A program made the translations under genes and the position numbers. The notes under the pieces are model-generated. The model was given only the letters and a program-made list of their open reading frames with translations, was not told where the DNA came from and ran no database searches. A stretch of DNA of 31,886 nucleotides from a virus. This document shows positions 3,644-29,731 of the stretch, in pieces (the stretch's first letter is position 1; each line of letters starts with the position of its first letter). Where the stretch lies: positions 1 through 31,886 of IMG/VR virus record IMGVR_UViG_3300032249_000890. The stretch is one strand, 5' to 3'.

Positions 3644-4270
3644 TTATACTCCTTGTCTTCCTACTTGCATAATTCCTGTTTGTCCTACACCTACCATTCC
3701 ACTAATATATAGAAAATCAATATCTATAAATATCGGTTGGTGTGTTAATGGTGCATATCGTTTTAATAAATCTTGTAAAATTAAATATTGTTTTACACTT
3801 GATACGGTTCCAATTACTTTGTAGAGATACATAGGAAATGTTCCATCTTGATTAACCAACGGAACCCATGAAGGATAACTTTCAGTTTGAAGTTGTCCAG
3901 TCATACCCAAACCGACCATTGAACTTGTATTTATACTATATTCTTCTAGTGTTATATTTGGAAAAACTTTTTGTATTTGATTTTGTATATAAATTTTAGA
4001 TTGTCCGCCTGTCCCTATGTAGTACGAATTTAATAATTCTCTTTTACCTGATAGTGATAAAGATGGATCATTTTCTAAACCAAAAGCATCAAAAAAGTTT
4101 TGTATTAAATCGGTAGTTGTTAAAGTTACCGATTCATTTAAAGTTAGTATTGCATAATTATATACTCTATTAATAGATTCACTTATTCCGTTTATAACTT
4201 TTCCAAATTCCCCTAAAATATTCCATGGAGATCCTTTAGGAAATAAACTTTTAAGTAAATTTAAGACCAT
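3644..4270 (-). CDS. Mu gp48 / YmfQ-type baseplate protein
   Basis: A 208-residue protein that starts inside the 3' end of the baseplate J gene (10-base overlap). It opens MVLNLLKSLFPKGSPWNILG, then has a helical middle and a GLENDPSLSLSGKRELL segment, the pattern of the YmfQ/DUF2313-type proteins of Mu-like phages (Mu gp48). These lie between baseplate J and the fibre and probably close the wedge. The C-terminus has two glycine-rich repeats (VGLGMTGQLQ and VGVGQTGIMQ). Family assignment rests on position plus pattern. Confidence 0.7.
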   Translation of the reverse strand: MVLNLLKSLFPKGSPWNILGEFGKVINGISESINRVYNYAILTLNESVTLTTTDLIQNFFDAFGLENDPSLSLSGKRELLNSYYIGTGGQSKIYIQNQIQKVFPNITLEEYSINTSSMVGLGMTGQLQTESYPSWVPLVNQDGTFPMYLYKVIGTVSSVKQYLILQDLLKRYAPLTHQPIFIDIDFLYISGMVGVGQTGIMQVGRQGV

Positions 4271-5346
4271 GTAAATGTTCCCGGTTTCGCTAATTCATCA
4301 TCATCTAAAGAATAAGGAAATGTCTTACCTGCTGAAGTCAATACAATACCTAAAGATTTTGCACCTGCTAAAGTTGCAATTGTGATACATTCAGAAACTG
4401 AAATATTGTTTTTTGGTTCAGGATCGTTAGGAAATAATAATGGTCTTCTTTGGTAAAAGTATTCTGTAATTTCGCTTTGTATTGTAGCACGTAATGCAGG
4501 TGTATCTACTTGTAAATTTGAAACCGCTACATTTATAGTTATTTCTGTAAATGCTACCACATTTATATTTGAATTTAGTGGTCGTAATTCATAATCATTT
4601 ATATAGTCTTCCACTTCTTGCAATTTTGAATTATCTGGAATCCTTGTTGTAGGTGTAGTAGTTTCTAATAATGGGTATATAAAAATAATACCAGGTGAAT
4701 CCAAAAACGGAAAAGCCTCCGCAATACCTGGCACTTTTAACGTCCATATAATGTAATCGTTTACAGATCCACCTTGAGGAGGAAATTTTTGTCTTACCGA
4801 TATACGATTTCTAAAATTTTCAATAGATTCTTCATCCCTTCCCGATTGGGTTATGGTTGCAATTGTAATTGTTGAGCTTAAACCTACTGTTGGATTTGAT
4901 TCTGTTAATATATCGGTTGCTATTAAATTTGGTTCGGATCCACTTGTAAGACTTTCTAATTGTAAAGTTGCCGATCCACTTGAAATTGTAGCCAAAACAG
5001 TTACTTGATACGCAAAATTTCCCCTAGTATATATTTTTCCAATTGGAATATTTGTCCCGTTTGTTCCTGTGATACTTGCCGTGCCTCTCCATTCTTGAGA
5101 TACGTTAGGGAATAATCCATATTCCTGACCTTTTAGAATTAATCCTTCATAATCAGCCGTATTTACAAATATTTGTCTTCTAGTATAATCAATATATTTA
5201 TAAATTAAATATAAGGCACCTGCTAAGGCTGTAGAAATTATACTCCATACCGAAATTGGTAATAATGGAGCCGTTTTACCTGTTGCCGTTTCAATGTCGG
5301 TGAGAATTTGTTCTTTTATTTCTGTGATTGTTGGAATACTAGCCAA
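4261..5346 (-). CDS. baseplate J-like protein (Mu gp47 type)
   Basis: A 361-residue wedge component that forms the outer baseplate ring and connects hub to fibres. Visible signatures: IKEQILTDIETATGK at the N-terminus, then FVNTADYEGLILKGQEYGL, then SGRDEESIENFRNRI, then QGGSVNDYIIWTLKVPGIAEAFPF, all in the baseplate J order and spacing. Length fits the family. It overlaps the gp46-like gene by 8 bases and the gp48-like gene by 10, a translationally coupled wedge cluster in Mu order. Confidence 0.92.
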   Translation of the reverse strand: MASIPTITEIKEQILTDIETATGKTAPLLPISVWSIISTALAGALYLIYKYIDYTRRQIFVNTADYEGLILKGQEYGLFPNVSQEWRGTASITGTNGTNIPIGKIYTRGNFAYQVTVLATISSGSATLQLESLTSGSEPNLIATDILTESNPTVGLSSTITIATITQSGRDEESIENFRNRISVRQKFPPQGGSVNDYIIWTLKVPGIAEAFPFLDSPGIIFIYPLLETTTPTTRIPDNSKLQEVEDYINDYELRPLNSNINVVAFTEITINVAVSNLQVDTPALRATIQSEITEYFYQRRPLLFPNDPEPKNNISVSECITIATLAGAKSLGIVLTSAGKTFPYSLDDDELAKPGTFTWS

Positions 5347-6497: not shown

Positions 6498-7663
6498 AAT
6501 TTCTTAAAATACTCCAAAGAACTTTTATACATTTCATTATTCGGAATACCTAAAATTTGTTTTAATAAATTTTTGTCTTTGAGGTTTAAATCTTCAAAAG
6601 TTTGAAAAAATTCTAAATCTGGATCTTGTAATGTAAAAACGGAAGGTAAACATAATTGTAATTCAATTATATAGCCTGAATTTATATCATAGGTAAAATC
6701 TACTTGTTTGATACAAAATTTAGATTCTTTGTAAATCAAATTCATGGGAGAAATTACATTTACTAAAATACCCGGTTGAAATAATTTTTTACCCCATTCC
6801 CAAGTTGAAAGTATTACAGAAAAATTCATAGATTCAGATATTGATTTTGATTTTCCAAGTTTTGCTACTTTATCCAAATCTCCATTATTGTCGTCTGCTC
6901 TGAAAAACTTTTTTCCTCTATTGTTAATTGTATTATCAGTTACTATTTTTTGTGCATAACCTTTTTTAAATCCTACATATTCAGAAAATCTTTTAGTAAC
7001 GTCGTATGTCGCTGTGATACTCAAAACATTTTCCTTTCCGTCCTGAATGCTAATTTGAGGATCGGTCAATTTATTAAAATTTATAAATTCAAGTGAACCA
7101 TCAAATCTAGGCACAGCCCATAAGCCTTTTTGAGCAGCGTATTTCGATAAAATATCAAAAGCATTATCCCCAGAATTCCAATCACATAAGGGAAATATAG
7201 TTTTTGTTTCTTCTAAAGTATTTGTAAAATTTAAATATTGTGATAATCCTTCAATAGTTGAATTTGCAAGTTGACTTCCTTTTACTTGCGTATCTAATAA
7301 TATTCCAGATTTTGATCTACCTTGAATATTAATATTGCTTCCTGAATTGGAATAACCTGTTGTAATTTTTTCTAAAATCCCAGTAAATATTCTTTTATTT
7401 TTGTATCTTATTATAATTTCTTCATTTCCAAAAGGTTTTATTTGGTTACTTAATCCCTTTGATGCATTAAAAATTGTATCAAAACTAAAAGCCGCACATC
7501 CTGAATCTATTGCGTATGACACTCTTAAGGCATTAAATTCAGAAAATTCTTTACCATTAATTTCTATAATTAAAGGAGATTTTTTCTTTGTATTTAAATT
7601 TAATACATCATATTTTGGTTCAATTAAATCAATATCAAATTCTGGTATATAAAAAGACATCAA
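6494..7663 (-). CDS. baseplate hub protein (Mu gp44/gpP, gpD-like)
   Basis: A 389-residue protein of the late-control gpD/gpP hub family, which forms the ring into which the spike docks. Visible: an N-terminal beta domain (LIIEINGKEFSEFNALRVSYAID), GNEEIIIRYKNKRIFTGILEKI, the NFTNTLEETKTIFPLCDWNSGDNAFDILSKYAAQKGLW segment, and EFINFNKLTD. Position between gpN-like and gp45-like genes matches Mu. It overlaps the upstream gene by 4 bases. Confidence 0.83.
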   Translation of the reverse strand: MMSFYIPEFDIDLIEPKYDVLNLNTKKKSPLIIEINGKEFSEFNALRVSYAIDSGCAAFSFDTIFNASKGLSNQIKPFGNEEIIIRYKNKRIFTGILEKITTGYSNSGSNINIQGRSKSGILLDTQVKGSQLANSTIEGLSQYLNFTNTLEETKTIFPLCDWNSGDNAFDILSKYAAQKGLWAVPRFDGSLEFINFNKLTDPQISIQDGKENVLSITATYDVTKRFSEYVGFKKGYAQKIVTDNTINNRGKKFFRADDNNGDLDKVAKLGKSKSISESMNFSVILSTWEWGKKLFQPGILVNVISPMNLIYKESKFCIKQVDFTYDINSGYIIELQLCLPSVFTLQDPDLEFFQTFEDLNLKDKNLLKQILGIPNNEMYKSSLEYFKKL

Positions 7664-21656: not shown

Positions 21657-21930
21657 TTTTATATTTAAGTAATATTTTCATTATTAAAACAAGTATAAAA
21701 TTTTTAGTAATAAAATTTATCGTCCTAAGTGCCCAAAAATTGGCTGTCAGACAAAAAATAAAGCATGTTTGAGTCAATCCATTTTGCTATAGACTTGTCA
21801 CAGTACCTTTTGATTTTTTTGCCCTTCACGCATCACAGATTAACTTGTAAGACGTTTAAAACTACTTTACCATGCCCGACCTACAAAGCTTTTAAAATGG
21901 CTTAAAATCAATTGTATTGCGTATTTTTAT
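21657..21930. other. non-coding leader of the late operon
   Basis: AT-rich, no credible ORF. It should carry the late promoter (reading - strand) and probably part of cos. I find no convincing -35/-10 pair and no strong hairpin here. Confidence 0.5.
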
Positions 21931-22496: not shown

Positions 22497-22700
22497 ATGG
22501 AATTTAAATTTGATTTTAAAGATATTCTGACATACGGAAGCTTTATAGTTTCTTTGTCGGTCGCATATTATACCCACGAAATACGTATCGTTAAGCTAGA
22601 AAGCGAAACCCAACAAGATCGCAAAATAGTCCAAGAAATTAAAGATGAATTACGTGAAATAAAAGCCGATGTAAAACAATTATTAATAAAGGTGAAATAA
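22497..22700 (+). CDS. small membrane protein with coiled-coil tail (holin/XhlA-like candidate)
   Basis: A 67-residue protein with one hydrophobic segment (about 10-26, ILTYGSFIVSLSVAYYT) followed by a charged helix of heptads (RIVKLESETQQDRKIVQEIKDELREIKADVKQLL). One helix plus coiled coil is the layout of XhlA/BhlA-type holin-associated proteins, although in XhlA the order is reversed. The ATG lacks a Shine-Dalgarno. It is followed one base later by another membrane gene. A lysis role is inference. Confidence 0.6.
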   Translation: MEFKFDFKDILTYGSFIVSLSVAYYTHEIRIVKLESETQQDRKIVQEIKDELREIKADVKQLLIKVK

Positions 22701-22701
22701 A

Positions 22702-22920
22702 ATGAAATTTGATATAAATGGGTATTACAAACCGACACCAAAAAATTTTAGAAAGTTAGGCGATGCATTACTAGGTATGTCTCAGTTTTTGACCGGATAT
22801 GCTGTTGTTATGGAAGAAAAATGGTTGGCTTTGATTTGTATTCTAATTGGGACAATTGGAAAGGGCATGACTAATTTTTTTGTTGAGGAGACTGAGATAC
22901 AGGATAAGGGATATGCTTAA
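22702..22920 (+). CDS. small membrane protein, holin candidate
   Basis: A 72-residue protein with an AAAGGTGA Shine-Dalgarno just before the start. The helical start is followed by hydrophobic segments about 22-38 and 43-60 (WLALICILIGTIGKGMTNFF) and a short charged tail. Size and two-helix shape fit small phage holins, and the pair with the upstream gene suits holin/antiholin, but neither is a named family I can identify. Confidence 0.6.
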   Translation: MKFDINGYYKPTPKNFRKLGDALLGMSQFLTGYAVVMEEKWLALICILIGTIGKGMTNFFVEETEIQDKGYA

Positions 22921-23018: not shown

Positions 23019-23507
23019 CTAATCTAATTTAATATCCTGCCAAGAATTTTTATAAACTTCTTCAATTTCAGAATCATATTGTTTAATAGCGAGTTCAGTC
23101 AAATAAACTATTATAATAATTGGTAGTACAGACATAACTAACGATTGACTAAACATTACTATCGTTCCAAAATCATCCAGGGCATTTTTGCAAGATCCGG
23201 CACAAGCGAAATACGTAGTAGTATTTGCACCGAGCGAAATCATAAATGCTAACAAAGCCGATCCGAACATCAAACCATAGATCCTTGCAAGGTGAAATAC
23301 AATAATACTAACATCGAGAGCCATAGTGATACCAATAGCATAAACCGTAATACTAAATTCAGATCCTATAAAATCCATACGTGTTTGACCTAAAAAATAT
23401 TTTAACGCTGAATAATTGGATACTACTCCGATAGTGCCAAAAAATATAACCAAGCTAAGTTTAAGCCGTTTTGTTTTAAAAAATTCAAAAAATTTTGATT
23501 TGTTCAT
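23019..23507 (-). CDS. four-helix membrane protein on the opposite strand, unknown
   Basis: A protein of 162 residues. A first ATG (23522) exists, but the second (23507) is preceded by GGAGATAAACAAAATG, the same leader as recT, so the second is preferred. Four hydrophobic segments (about 16-38, 48-72, 77-100, 118-140 of the short form) are separated by charged loops, with a CAGSC pair in the loop before the last and an acidic C-terminus. It is the only - strand gene in the right arm, with its own divergent promoter, which suggests independent, possibly lysogenic expression. Superinfection exclusion or an immunity-like role are candidate uses; no family is recognised. Confidence 0.72.
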   Translation of the reverse strand: MNKSKFFEFFKTKRLKLSLVIFFGTIGVVSNYSALKYFLGQTRMDFIGSEFSITVYAIGITMALDVSIIVFHLARIYGLMFGSALLAFMISLGANTTTYFACAGSCKNALDDFGTIVMFSQSLVMSVLPIIIIVYLTELAIKQYDSEIEEVYKNSWQDIKLD

Positions 23508-23525
23508 TTTGTTTATCTCCATAAA

Positions 23526-23600
23526 TATTATGTCGGATTTTTTCGGGATTGCTTAACTATAAAATTTTATCTACAAAAAGGGACATTATACGACATAATA
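23526..23600. promoter_or_regulatory. operator-like inverted repeat flanking a TATAAT box
   Basis: TATTATGTCG (23526-23535) is repeated inverted as CGACATAATA (23591-23600). The right copy directly abuts TATAAT read on the - strand (23590-23585), the probable -10 of the membrane gene; a second -35/-10 candidate (TTGACT near 23653, TAATAC) is further upstream. A repressor binding both copies could shut this promoter. Confidence 0.5.
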
Positions 23601-23686
23601 AATGCGTTTTTATTGGATTTTTTGCGTATTACACTAACATATGTATAGTCAAAATTGATTAAAAATACCCGTATAAACCACTAGAA

Positions 23687-23762
23687 TTTTAGTAAAAAAA
23701 ATGTAATTTTTAGTATTTTTTAGTAAAAAAAGATTGACTTTTTAGGATGGGTAAACGATAAT
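23687..23762 (+). promoter_or_regulatory. strong + strand promoter with upstream repeats
   Basis: TTGACT (23734-23739), exactly 17 bases, GATAAT (23757-23762). Just upstream TTTTAGTA occurs three times (23687, 23708, 23718), the last two one helical turn apart, an activator or UP-type arrangement. The next gene starts 31 bases after the -10. Confidence 0.72.
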
Positions 23763-24300: not shown

Positions 24301-24330
24301 GGCGGATGCCCATACATCCGCCTTATTTTA
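24301..24330 (+). terminator. rho-independent terminator / attenuator upstream of the peptidase gene
   Basis: GGCGGATG (24301-24308) pairs with CATCCGCC (24315-24322) over a 6-base loop, followed by TTATTTTA. It is the most GC-rich hairpin in this arm. It ends only 17 bases before the peptidase gene, so read-through control of that gene is possible. Confidence 0.72.
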
Positions 24331-24346
24331 TGGGAGATAAATTTTA

Positions 24347-24958
24347 ATGGAATTATACGACATAATACCTACCCCTAGGTACCTTACCCAGCGAGACAAT
24401 AAAAACCCATTTACTGGGAAATCTGATCCTAACAATCAGTGCATGGTCGCCACATTTACCATGCTGGCAAATTGGTTAGGTGACAAATTAAAAATAGCGG
24501 AATTACAAAATTATACCGAAATTGAACATCTTACCTTGGTAGGTAGATCCGAAAAAGAAATTGAATCCCGTAGATATAATTCCTCAAATCATGCCGATGT
24601 TATAAATCAAAAATTAAAATCTCTAAAATTATCTCAAAAATTGGTATCCGGAGTTTTTAATTTTATCCAGGTAAAAAATATTGCCAAAGAAAAACATAGT
24701 CCTGTCGAGGTCGGATCTATGATAACCGGATCTGGGCATATAATTTTATATATCGGAAATAATAAATGGCATGACTCCTACGGAAAATGCTCGGAAAAAA
24801 CTTTGTCTTACAATGGCGAGGGATTTACTACGGATGGATCAAATGTAGAATACTCGGAAAAATTTGTATTGGAAAGAATTTTTAGAAATGCTGATCCACA
24901 AGGAAAAACCATAAAAACCAACGTAGCTAGAACGTGCTGGTATTACAATGGATTATAA
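24347..24958 (+). CDS. C39-like cysteine peptidase, endolysin candidate
   Basis: A 203-residue protein with the papain-like C39 layout: NNQCMVATFTMLANWLG with probable nucleophile Cys32 (and Gln31 as oxyanion residue), GSGHIILYIGNN with His131, and KWHDSYG with Asp143. Such enzymes cut peptide crosslinks or bacteriocin-type peptides; in a phage lysis arm the best guess is a peptidoglycan endopeptidase. No signal peptide is visible, consistent with holin-dependent release. The start is fixed by GGGAGATAA. Not similar to lysozyme or amidase families by eye. Confidence 0.7.
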   Translation: MELYDIIPTPRYLTQRDNKNPFTGKSDPNNQCMVATFTMLANWLGDKLKIAELQNYTEIEHLTLVGRSEKEIESRRYNSSNHADVINQKLKSLKLSQKLVSGVFNFIQVKNIAKEKHSPVEVGSMITGSGHIILYIGNNKWHDSYGKCSEKTLSYNGEGFTTDGSNVEYSEKFVLERIFRNADPQGKTIKTNVARTCWYYNGL

Positions 24959-24996: not shown

Positions 24997-25179
24997 ATGA
25001 AGTTTAAAAAGTTAAATCATCTTTTAGAGTTTGAGATAAATTCTAAATCATCCTACATAAAACAAAATCATGCATGGTTTAAAAACGATGACGGTTTTGT
25101 TATACAGGTAACTGACAACAAAGAAATTGCTAAATTAAATTTAGCACAGGACGAATACAATAAAAGGCTAATAAAATGA
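24997..25179 (+). CDS. small unknown protein, coupled to a regulator gene
   Basis: A 60-residue, lysine/asparagine-rich protein with GGAGAATAAA before its ATG. It has one small helical domain and no motif. Its stop overlaps the ATG of the ribbon-helix-helix gene (ATGA), so the two are coupled, like an antitoxin-regulator pair, though it is not a recognisable toxin. Confidence 0.55.
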   Translation: MKFKKLNHLLEFEINSKSSYIKQNHAWFKNDDGFVIQVTDNKEIAKLNLAQDEYNKRLIK

Positions 25180-25337
25180 AAACACAAGAATTGTATGACA
25201 ATAAAATCGTAGTAAAAGTGACTGCATCACAAAAAAGACAGATTACAATAGCAGCCAAAAAAGAAAATGTAAACGTATCTGTTTTTGTTCGAAGTCTAAT
25301 TGAGTCAAAAATAGGTAAATCTAAAAAGGTAAAATAA
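25176..25337 (+). CDS. ribbon-helix-helix DNA-binding protein (Arc/CopG-like)
   Basis: A 53-residue protein. KIVVKVTASQKRQITIAAKKENVNVSVFVRSLIESKIG reads as the RHH fold: a short beta ribbon (VVKVTA), helix, a turn at VNVS, then helix FVRSLIES. Such proteins repress by dimer binding to inverted repeats. It overlaps the preceding gene by 4 bases and is followed by a terminator. Confidence 0.75.
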   Translation: MKTQELYDNKIVVKVTASQKRQITIAAKKENVNVSVFVRSLIESKIGKSKKVK

Positions 25338-28274: not shown

Positions 28275-29087
28275 ATGAAAGTATTAATAGCATGTGAAGA
28301 AAGCCAAACCGTATGTATTGCATTTAGAGAATTAGGTCATGAAGCTTATTCTTGTGACATACAAGATTGTAGTGGTGGGCATCCTGAATGGCATATTAAG
28401 GATGATGTGTTGAAAGTTATTGATGGATACAGAAAAGTAGTACATGCCAATGAATGTTTTTATGAGGAATGGGATAAAGATAGGAAAAATGGCATATGCG
28501 AAAATTGTAAAATATTATATTCAGATTGTGAATGTCCAGGACCAACAGAAGAATATGAATATAAACAATTTAATAATGTTTTATATGCTAAAAAATATAA
28601 ATGGGACTTAATGATTGCACATCCACCGTGTACATATTTAAGCTTTGCCGGAAATGCTTGGTTTGATATTGATAAATATAAAAATAAAGCAATAGAACGA
28701 ATACAAAAAAGAAAAGAAGCTGAAATATTTTTTTTAAAAATTTACAATTGTAAAATACCAAAAATAGCTATAGAAAACCCAAGAGGATCTATAAATAAAA
28801 TAATAAAACATTCCCAAGTGATACATCCATATTATTTTGGAGATAAAGAAAAAAAAATTACTTGTTTATGGCTTAAAAACTTACCAAAATTAGTGCATAT
28901 AAAAGAAGATGATTTATTCGATAGTGCAACACATACCGAAGAAATAAAACCAAAATTTATTGATAGATCTGGAAAAAAAAGATATTTTACTGATTTATTT
29001 GGAAAGACTCCAGATAGAATTAAACTTAGATCCAAAACATTTCCAGGTATTGCAAAGGCAATGGCTACCCAATGGGGTAAAATATGA
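28275..29087 (+). CDS. C5-cytosine methyltransferase-like protein
   Basis: A 270-residue protein. The ATG at 28275 is preferred over an upstream TTG. MKVLIACEESQTVCIAFRELGHEAYSCDI is a SAM-binding motif I; HPPCTYLSFAG (116-125) carries the Pro-Cys pair of C5 methyltransferases, and IENPRG (166-171) stands where ENV is usual. CxxC-x6-CxC at 75-87 (GICENCKILYSDCECPG) is an inserted metal-binding knuckle. No clear target-recognition domain is present, so it may be a single-domain enzyme or a degenerate one. Similar short phage proteins are often labelled Dcm-like. It could modify phage DNA or a base, and its target is unknown. Confidence 0.72.
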   Translation: MKVLIACEESQTVCIAFRELGHEAYSCDIQDCSGGHPEWHIKDDVLKVIDGYRKVVHANECFYEEWDKDRKNGICENCKILYSDCECPGPTEEYEYKQFNNVLYAKKYKWDLMIAHPPCTYLSFAGNAWFDIDKYKNKAIERIQKRKEAEIFFLKIYNCKIPKIAIENPRGSINKIIKHSQVIHPYYFGDKEKKITCLWLKNLPKLVHIKEDDLFDSATHTEEIKPKFIDRSGKKRYFTDLFGKTPDRIKLRSKTFPGIAKAMATQWGKI

Positions 29088-29455
29088 AAACATACCTACT
29101 AATATTACTACTACTATCATGTAGCACAATCCAAACAAGTATTTCCAAACCTCCAAATATGGAAGAAATCATAAGTGAAATAAAATCTAATTCTGAAATA
29201 CAGGACAAGACAAAATCGAAAATAATCAAAACATTGGAAGAATCCGCATTGTATAACCAGGAATGTTTTAATAAAAATATTTTTCTTGAAAAAGAGAATT
29301 TTTCCTTGAAACAAACCATACAAAATTTAGAATTGGAAATCCAGACTTGGCGAAATATAAAAAATACTTTTTGGATGATCTTTATTTTAGGAAGTATTAT
29401 TTTTATTGGTTCAATGCTATGGAAATTTAGAAAACTTATGGGAGTTCCGATTTGA
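29084..29455 (+). CDS. unimolecular spanin candidate (lipoprotein with C-terminal TM)
   Basis: A 123-residue protein with a lipobox at 10-13 (L-L-S-C, Cys13) after a short Lys and hydrophobic core, a helical periplasmic part (about 25-94) rich in Gln/Asn/Glu/Lys, and a transmembrane segment at about 95-113 followed by KFRK. This is the layout of single-protein spanins such as phage T1 gp11, which join outer and inner membranes and fuse them in the last step of lysis. Overlaps the previous gene by 4 bases. Similarity by layout only; an ordinary lipoprotein remains possible. Confidence 0.68.
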   Translation: MKTYLLILLLLSCSTIQTSISKPPNMEEIISEIKSNSEIQDKTKSKIIKTLEESALYNQECFNKNIFLEKENFSLKQTIQNLELEIQTWRNIKNTFWMIFILGSIIFIGSMLWKFRKLMGVPI

Positions 29456-29571
29456 ATAATTATCTTAAATATTTACTAATTGTTATACTATTAATTATTG
29501 CATCGGATCATAATTTTTTGACCTGCAAATACATAAAAAAAATAAAAAAGGAATTTATAAATGAAAACTGA
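29452..29571 (+). CDS. possible short membrane ORF with TTG start
   Basis: TTG at 29452 overlaps the stop of the spanin candidate and gives 39 residues beginning MNNYLKYLLIVILLIIASD, a hydrophobic helix with a basic tail. No Shine-Dalgarno is visible. Chaining is in favour, the rare start against. Confidence 0.3.
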   Translation: MNNYLKYLLIVILLIIASDHNFLTCKYIKKIKKEFINEN

Positions 29572-29731
29572 TAAAAAGAAATACTATTATCCACAATGGG
29601 CTAAACAAAAAACTATAAAAATAAATAATGATCTACATGATAAAATAAAAGAATATTGCGATACTAATGGTATTAATATTTATAGTTTTACCGAACAAGC
29701 TTTAAAGTTACATTTATCGAATAAAAGATAG
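29561..29731 (+). CDS. small DNA-binding candidate (RHH-like)
   Basis: A 56-residue protein (YYYPQWAKQKTIKINNDLHDKIKEYCDTNGINIYSFTEQALKLHLSNK): a KTIKIN strand, then two helices separated by a turn (GINIYSF), the RHH layout. AAGGAATTTATAA precedes the ATG. Its TAG shares its G with the GTG of the primase-helicase gene, so the two are coupled. Confidence 0.6.
   Translation: MKTDKKKYYYPQWAKQKTIKINNDLHDKIKEYCDTNGINIYSFTEQALKLHLSNKR

What the first reader, a model, noticed from the sequence alone, without database searches (positions are those of the whole stretch)
23019..23762. Lone opposite-strand four-helix membrane gene with its own operator-like control region
All other right-arm genes read +, this one reads -. 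A 10-base inverted repeat (TATTATGTCG / CGACATAATA) abuts its TATAAT box, and the divergent + promoter has three TTTTAGTA repeats. That is the layout of an accessory lysogenic gene or exclusion factor under a repressor.
Basis: partly seen in the sequence, partly recalled or inferred. Interest (0 to 1): 0.6.

Follow-up and report, generated by a model that had tools for sequence, protein, structure and literature searches.

The report
Lone reverse-strand phage membrane gene
A small four-helix membrane protein of unknown family sits alone on the reverse strand between the early and lysis genes of two otherwise unrelated kinds of phage, under strong selection and with its own control region; it may keep rival phages out or time lysis, but it does not look like a gene for dormant phages.

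Summary
The gene is real. Its likely start is 23507, not 23522 (162 aa). It belongs to a family I found in 14 virus records (window plus 13 IMG/VR contigs, 64-98% identity) and in no Pfam, PHROG, NCBIfam, PADLOC, PDB, phage, plasmid or GTDB-genome search. In all 14 it lies on the strand opposite to a 67-aa holin/anti-holin-like gene; where early genes are held (13 of 14) it diverges from them. dN/dS is about 0.03-0.05 in the closest pairs. The 285-nt spacer to the divergent early gene changes about four times more slowly than synonymous sites, so it is a functional control region. The 10-base inverted repeat is no longer than chance gives (73 of 300 shuffles); its near arm contains the likely -10 box. 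The TTTTAGTA triplet is beyond chance (0 of 300). The lysogeny reading is not supported: no integrase, resolvase, HTH_3, S24 or rve domain in any record, three of which look complete. The window (contractile tail) and four podovirus-like records consistently share only this gene and its two holin-like neighbours. Best guess: an early membrane protein for superinfection exclusion. Main rival: lysis control. Neither is shown.

The parts
23019..23507 (-). gene X: 162-aa four-helix membrane protein (upstream in-frame ATG at 23522 probably not used)
   Evidence: 14 orthologues, dN/dS 0.03-0.05 in the closest pairs; L003 lacks a frame from the upstream ATG
23517..23520 (-). GGAG ribosome-binding site of X
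   Evidence: GGAG at -12 to -15 in 14 of 14 records
23527..23532 (-). likely -10 box of X (CATAAT), inside the near arm of the inverted repeat; possible -35 TTAAGC at 23556-23551
   Evidence: a 5-6 of 6 match to TATAAT at -23 to -27 in 9 of 14 records (window, L002-L007, L016, L035); the five others (L017, L019, L020, L021, L024) have none there
23526..23535 (.). near arm of the 10-base inverted repeat
   Evidence: present in window, L002 and L003; length at chance level
23591..23600 (.). far arm; CATAAT here could be a -10 box reading + (TCTACA at 23570, 18-nt spacer)
   Evidence: 10 of 10 bases in L003, 9 of 10 in L002; far arm absent in L024
23508..23792 (.). shared divergent control region, 285 nt
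   Evidence: 7.4-8.9% differences between window, L002 and L003, against 30-40% at synonymous sites of X
23687..23694 (+). TTTTAGTA repeat 1
   Evidence: 3 copies, 0 of 300 shuffles; spacing 21 and 10 nt in window, L002 and L003
23708..23715 (+). TTTTAGTA repeat 2
23718..23725 (+). TTTTAGTA repeat 3
23734..23762 (+). main divergent early promoter, TTGACT-17-GATAAT
   Evidence: the pattern searched was found in 6 of 14 records (window, L002, L003, L017, L019, L020)
22497..22700 (+). 67-aa holin/anti-holin-like neighbour that travels with X
   Evidence: phrog_10340 E 4.5e-9; present in all 14 X records, and in 1 record without X
22702..22920 (+). 72-aa holin-like neighbour (two helices by eye)
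   Evidence: 304 related stretches in IMG/VR

Best explanation
X is an inner-membrane protein with its own small transcription unit. It is read leftwards from a promoter directly in front of it, back to back with the main early promoter, and runs towards the lysis genes. Shown by sequence: the gene, its conservation, its fixed position and orientation, and a constrained control region. Inferred: it is switched on early in infection by host RNA polymerase, places four helices in the inner membrane (N and C ends inside, with an invariant CAGxCK segment in the outer loop between helices 3 and 4), and there blocks a second phage from delivering DNA (superinfection exclusion, as T4 Imm does for a lytic phage). 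The TTTTAGTA array in front of the early promoter is the likelier regulatory site, either for a phage RHH protein or as a phased A-tract/UP element.
For: 14 orthologues, all opposite in strand to the 67-aa gene. Strong purifying selection. Spacer constrained about fourfold. SD in 14 of 14 and a -10-like hexamer in 9 of 14. Shared by contractile-tailed and podovirus-like phages that otherwise have almost nothing in common in the parts compared, as expected of a gene that acts on a common host membrane. Hairpins after X with z below -2.3 in 7 of 9 folded (the five records with an HTH gene after X were not folded). No lysogeny genes found.
Against: No homology to any exclusion protein. Exclusion genes tend to be sporadic and fast-evolving (recalled), whereas X is nearly constant and slow. 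Its constant company with a holin-like pair points as much to lysis. No transcript data. The window itself has no significant hairpin after X (z +0.18). Five of 14 records lack a good -10 box. AlphaFold gives no reliable fold.
Confidence: 0.35

Rival explanations
1. X is a lysis-timing protein: an early-made membrane partner of the 67-aa and 72-aa holin-like proteins that delays or triggers hole formation, perhaps sensing superinfection through its outer loop (compare T4 lysis inhibition, recalled).
For: X occurs only in records with the 67-aa and 72-aa genes (14 of 14) and is near them even when virion modules are unrelated. The 67-aa gene is X-free in only 1 of 15 records (L039).
Against: It is not in the lysis operon and reads against it. 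L039 has the 67-aa gene, a YYEPTP relative of the 72-aa gene and a spanin-like gene without X. In the window the lysis peptidase lies in the early operon.
Confidence: 0.27
2. X is a host-takeover or abortive-infection membrane protein (an ion channel like lambda RexB or Sbash gp31, or an inhibitor of a host membrane process).
For: Four-helix phage membrane proteins with such roles are known (PMC7542560 and PMC9311878, passages read). Polar residues within helices (D65, H72, N95, E138) are invariant in 14 of 14.
Against: No conserved cytoplasmic partner: an HTH gene follows X on the same strand in only 5 of 14.
Confidence: 0.2
3. X is a lysogeny-expressed accessory (moron-type) exclusion gene under a prophage repressor.
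For: Own promoter, opposite strand, operator-like repeats, RHH proteins in the early region.
Against: No integrase, resolvase, HTH_3, S24 or rve domain. Three relatives look complete. No relative in GTDB genomes by two pattern scans. X is near-constant rather than accessory in this group.
Confidence: 0.08
4. About the repeat rather than the protein: the 10-base inverted repeat is not an operator; its arms are two back-to-back copies of a promoter element (CGACATAAT) that set X and a second + promoter.
For: Length at chance level. GACATAAT occurs at 4 places in the window: the two arms, a conserved site before the lysis peptidase gene, and the start of that gene. CATAAT lies at -10 distance from X.
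Against: The site before the peptidase gene has TTGACA only 14 nt upstream (my count), a poor sigma-70 spacing. The arms are conserved, but so is the whole spacer.
Confidence: 0.6

Closest known systems
T4 Imm and Spackle (superinfection exclusion of a lytic phage; PMC7677548 passages; PMC9311878 passages)
   Same: Small phage proteins (Spackle an early product) that act at the cell envelope of the infected cell
   Different: No sequence relation found to any family searched. Spackle is a periplasmic protein, and X has four predicted helices. Fold of X unknown.
Lambda RexB / mycobacteriophage Sbash gp31 / Butters gp31 (PMC7542560 passages; PMC9311878 passages)
   Same: Phage-encoded four-pass membrane protein proposed to protect the cell
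   Different: Those are prophage proteins that work with a cytoplasmic partner. X has no constant partner of that kind, and its phages lack detectable lysogeny genes.
Prophage moron / accessory locus (PMC7067206 passages)
   Same: Own promoter, antisense to the lytic genes
   Different: X is near-constant in its group and sits in genomes without the integrase or repressor domains searched
SPP1/PBSX-type two-holin lysis cassettes (PMC6316719 passages)
   Same: A one-helix and a two-helix holin-like pair near X resembles XhlA/XhlB in layout
   Different: X itself has no counterpart there that I know of; homology of the pair not tested

Membership tests
Phage moron / accessory lysogenic gene | Own promoter, orientation against the lytic genes | tested here: met
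   by consensus only: -10-like hexamer at the expected distance in 9 of 14 records
Phage moron / accessory lysogenic gene | Carried by a temperate phage or prophage | tested here: not met
   0 matches; no relative in GTDB genomes by pattern scan
Phage moron / accessory lysogenic gene | Sporadic presence, not needed by the phage | tested here: not met
   X in 14 of 15 records that carry the 67-aa gene; whether the phage needs it was not testable
Superinfection exclusion protein | Localised to the cell envelope | tested here: inconclusive
   hydropathy; AF2 helices at low confidence
Superinfection exclusion protein | Blocks infection by the same or related phages | not testable with these tools
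   needs plating and DNA-entry assays
Superinfection exclusion protein | Sequence relation to a known exclusion family | tested here: not met
   nothing credible
Repressor operator (inverted repeat) | Repeat longer than chance | tested here: not met
   73 of 300 shuffles have 10 or more
Repressor operator (TTTTAGTA array) | Repeats beyond chance and conserved | tested here: met
   0 of 300 shuffles; window, L002 and L003 all keep three copies; L024 has a different array, 6 TCTAAAA, also 0 of 300
Repressor operator (TTTTAGTA array) | Bound by a phage regulator | not testable with these tools
   RHH candidates 25176-25337 and 29561-29731, below Pfam cut-offs
Holin / antiholin | Family match | tested here: not met
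   no such match for X

The most novel reading that the evidence does not exclude
X founds a new family of strand-isolated phage membrane proteins that travels with a holin-like pair as a three-gene membrane module between virion types. It is made early and holds the lysis machinery in check or senses a second infection through its invariant CAGxCK loop: a lysis-inhibition or exclusion system unrelated to T4 rI/Imm.
Probability: 0.2. Interest if true: 0.65.

Novelty: new variant of a known kind. Interest (0 to 1): 0.45.

Why it matters
A slow-evolving membrane protein absent from every searched library is one of only three genes consistently shared, in the parts compared, by a contractile-tailed phage and four podovirus-like phage records. 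That marks it as important for life in a common host. Its lone orientation and constrained divergent control region make its timing and role directly testable, and would tell whether exclusion or lysis control is what such phages exchange.

Tried and rejected
Family searches of X: Pfam, PHROGs, NCBIfam and PADLOC gave only noise (13 of the 14 members at E up to 10 against Pfam and PHROGs). The PDB sequence search gave nothing credible. INPHARED and PLSDB tblastn gave nothing. AlphaFold twice, with 7 and 14 rows, reached pLDDT 47.6 and 48.4, so I ran no fold search. A recalled likeness to actinobacterial DUF2637/SpdB proteins was dropped because no Pfam match to it appeared. Host: the only annotated relative of two podovirus-type virion proteins is a Silvanigrella aquatica phage at 29.8% and 21.5% identity, which has no X; window proteins and a relative's primase hit scattered hosts, so the host is left open. 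An X search in 50 records (48 from the 72-aa scan, L039, and the Silvanigrella phage) found none; that call had no positive control of its own, but a model of the same family finds the known members. The pattern search for the early promoter missed 8 of 14 records because spacing or hexamers vary or the region is cut; by eye an ACGATA box is there in most.

Full report
WHAT IS THERE. The - strand ORF 23522..23019 lies alone among + genes. The likely start is 23507: relative L003 keeps the ribosome site but has no open frame from the upstream ATG, and GGAG stands 12-15 nt before the downstream ATG in 14 of 14 records. The product has 162 residues. Both AlphaFold models show long helices only, at low confidence. 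The hydropathy scan gives segments centred at about 17-35, 53-71, 76-94 and 123-141, the middle ones merging. By eye, the basic N-terminus (KSKFFEFFKTKRLK) and charged C-terminus suggest both ends inside.

FAMILY. Direct search of IMG/VR gave 6 contigs. Following the 67-aa neighbour gave 6 more with X at 64-68%, and an alignment search added 1: 14 records with the window. X is opposite in strand to the 67-aa gene in all 14. Early genes on the far side are visible in 13 (the contig of L006 begins 122 nt before X). No relative was found in INPHARED, PLSDB or GTDB genomes (pattern scans, so distant relatives could be missed). Substitution counts give dN/dS 0.049 (window-L002), 0.049 (window-L003), 0.028 (L002-L003) and 0.028 (L017-L019); of 14 pairs computed, the wider ones give up to 0.16 or are saturated at synonymous sites. 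Invariant in 14 of 14: among others S4, F6-F7, F9-F10, T12-K13-R14-L15-K16-L17 near the N-terminus, D65, H72, N95, C102, A103, G104, C106, K107 and E138.

CONTEXT. I compared the window with four podovirus-like records, held in part: 18.3 of 32.2, 20.5 of 31.2 and 12.2 of 30.7 kb, and most of 30.2 kb. The genes matched in 4 of 4 are X, the 67-aa and the 72-aa genes; a 73-aa and a 123-aa gene are matched in 2 of 4, and three others in 1 of 4, among them thymidylate synthase (matches to overlapping antisense frames are not counted). Virion genes do not match. The contractile-tailed relatives G001 and G012 match the window along the parts held. One record, L039/G014, has the 67-aa gene but no X. 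In 5 of 14 records a small HTH gene follows X on the same strand; three of the five were scanned and give HTH_17 below cut-off.

CONTROL REGION. Between X and the divergent gene lie 285 nt. Window-L002, window-L003 and L002-L003 differ there at 21 of 282, 25 of 281 and 21 of 282 sites, against 30-40% of synonymous sites in X. The whole spacer is therefore constrained, not only the repeat arms. The 10-base inverted repeat is matched or beaten in 73 of 300 shuffles. It is 10 of 10 in L003 and 9 of 10 in L002, while in L024 the near arm is partly kept and the far arm is missing. A -10-like hexamer at -23 to -27 before X is found in 9 of 14 records; in the window it is CATAAT within the near arm. 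TTTTAGTA occurs three times (0 of 300 shuffles) with spacings 21 and 10 nt in window, L002 and L003; L024 has instead six TCTAAAA (0 of 300), and five of its CTAAAA sites are 10, 22, 12 and 11 nt apart. Helix-phased arrays that change between relatives would fit a regulator and its sites changing together: the RHH proteins of L024's record match those of the window at only 41% and 53% (partial matches), against 96% in L002. Phased A-tracts or an UP element would fit too.

LYSOGENY. PF00589, PF00239 and HTH_3 gave 0 of 14 records, PF00665 and PF00717 0 of 13; the control genomes rang in each search. Contigs G001, G002 and G012 all begin with GATTGACTCAAAC, and the same bases close their other end. 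They therefore look like complete linear genomes of 36.5-38.6 kb, and the absence means something. The window is not complete: its last gene runs off the end. Unknown lysogeny systems, or an RHH repressor with episomal maintenance, are not excluded.

FUNCTION. Early or constant expression is inferred from position and promoter, not shown. Exclusion is favoured because X is expressed apart from the lysis genes and is exchanged among phages of different virion type. T4 Imm/Spackle show that lytic phages use such proteins (PMC7677548, PMC9311878, passages). Lysis control is close behind because X was never found without the holin-like pair. Four-pass proteins of the RexB/Sbash kind (PMC7542560 passages) are a third model. 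One literature search combining opposite strand, lysis cassette, early promoter, membrane protein, phage and freshwater returned 0 papers with 5 of 6 terms; no claim about print is made beyond that search.

Noticed in passing
window 21766-21779; contig ends of G001, G002, G012 (L119/L013, L120/L014, L121/L047): Three related contigs all start with GATTGACTCAAAC and end on the same bases, in the gap between the terminase and holin-like genes: probably the physical genome ends (cos-like).
   Followed up: partly
window 29084-29455; L016 7003-7386; L007 10527-10910: Protein with a lipobox-like start (LLLLSCS), coiled coil and C-terminal helix: looks by eye like a one-piece spanin. In the window it lies in the early operon, about 6 kb from the holin-like genes.
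   Followed up: no
window 23585-23600 and 24352-24367: Exact 16-mer ATTATACGACATAATA in the control region and again at the start of the lysis peptidase ORF. L002 and L003 lack about 9 bases there, so the second copy looks like a recent local insertion.
   Followed up: partly
window 23606-23640; L024 4206: GTTTTTATTGG(A/C)TTTTTTGCGTAT is conserved among the contractile-tailed relatives including L024; its halves were not found in the seven podovirus-like loci searched. Role unknown.
   Followed up: no
L016, L017, L019, L020, L021 (about 6832-7622): Small HTH_17-like gene directly after X on the same strand in five podovirus-like records.
   Followed up: partly
L024 control region 4116-4386: Six TCTAAAA copies, including an inverted pair in front of X, replace the TTTTAGTA array of the window.
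   Followed up: partly
window 24301-24322: Strong hairpin GGCGGATGCCCATACATCCGCC with T-rich tail just before the lysis peptidase gene; the stem is kept in L002 and L003, with base changes in L003 (seen).
   Followed up: no
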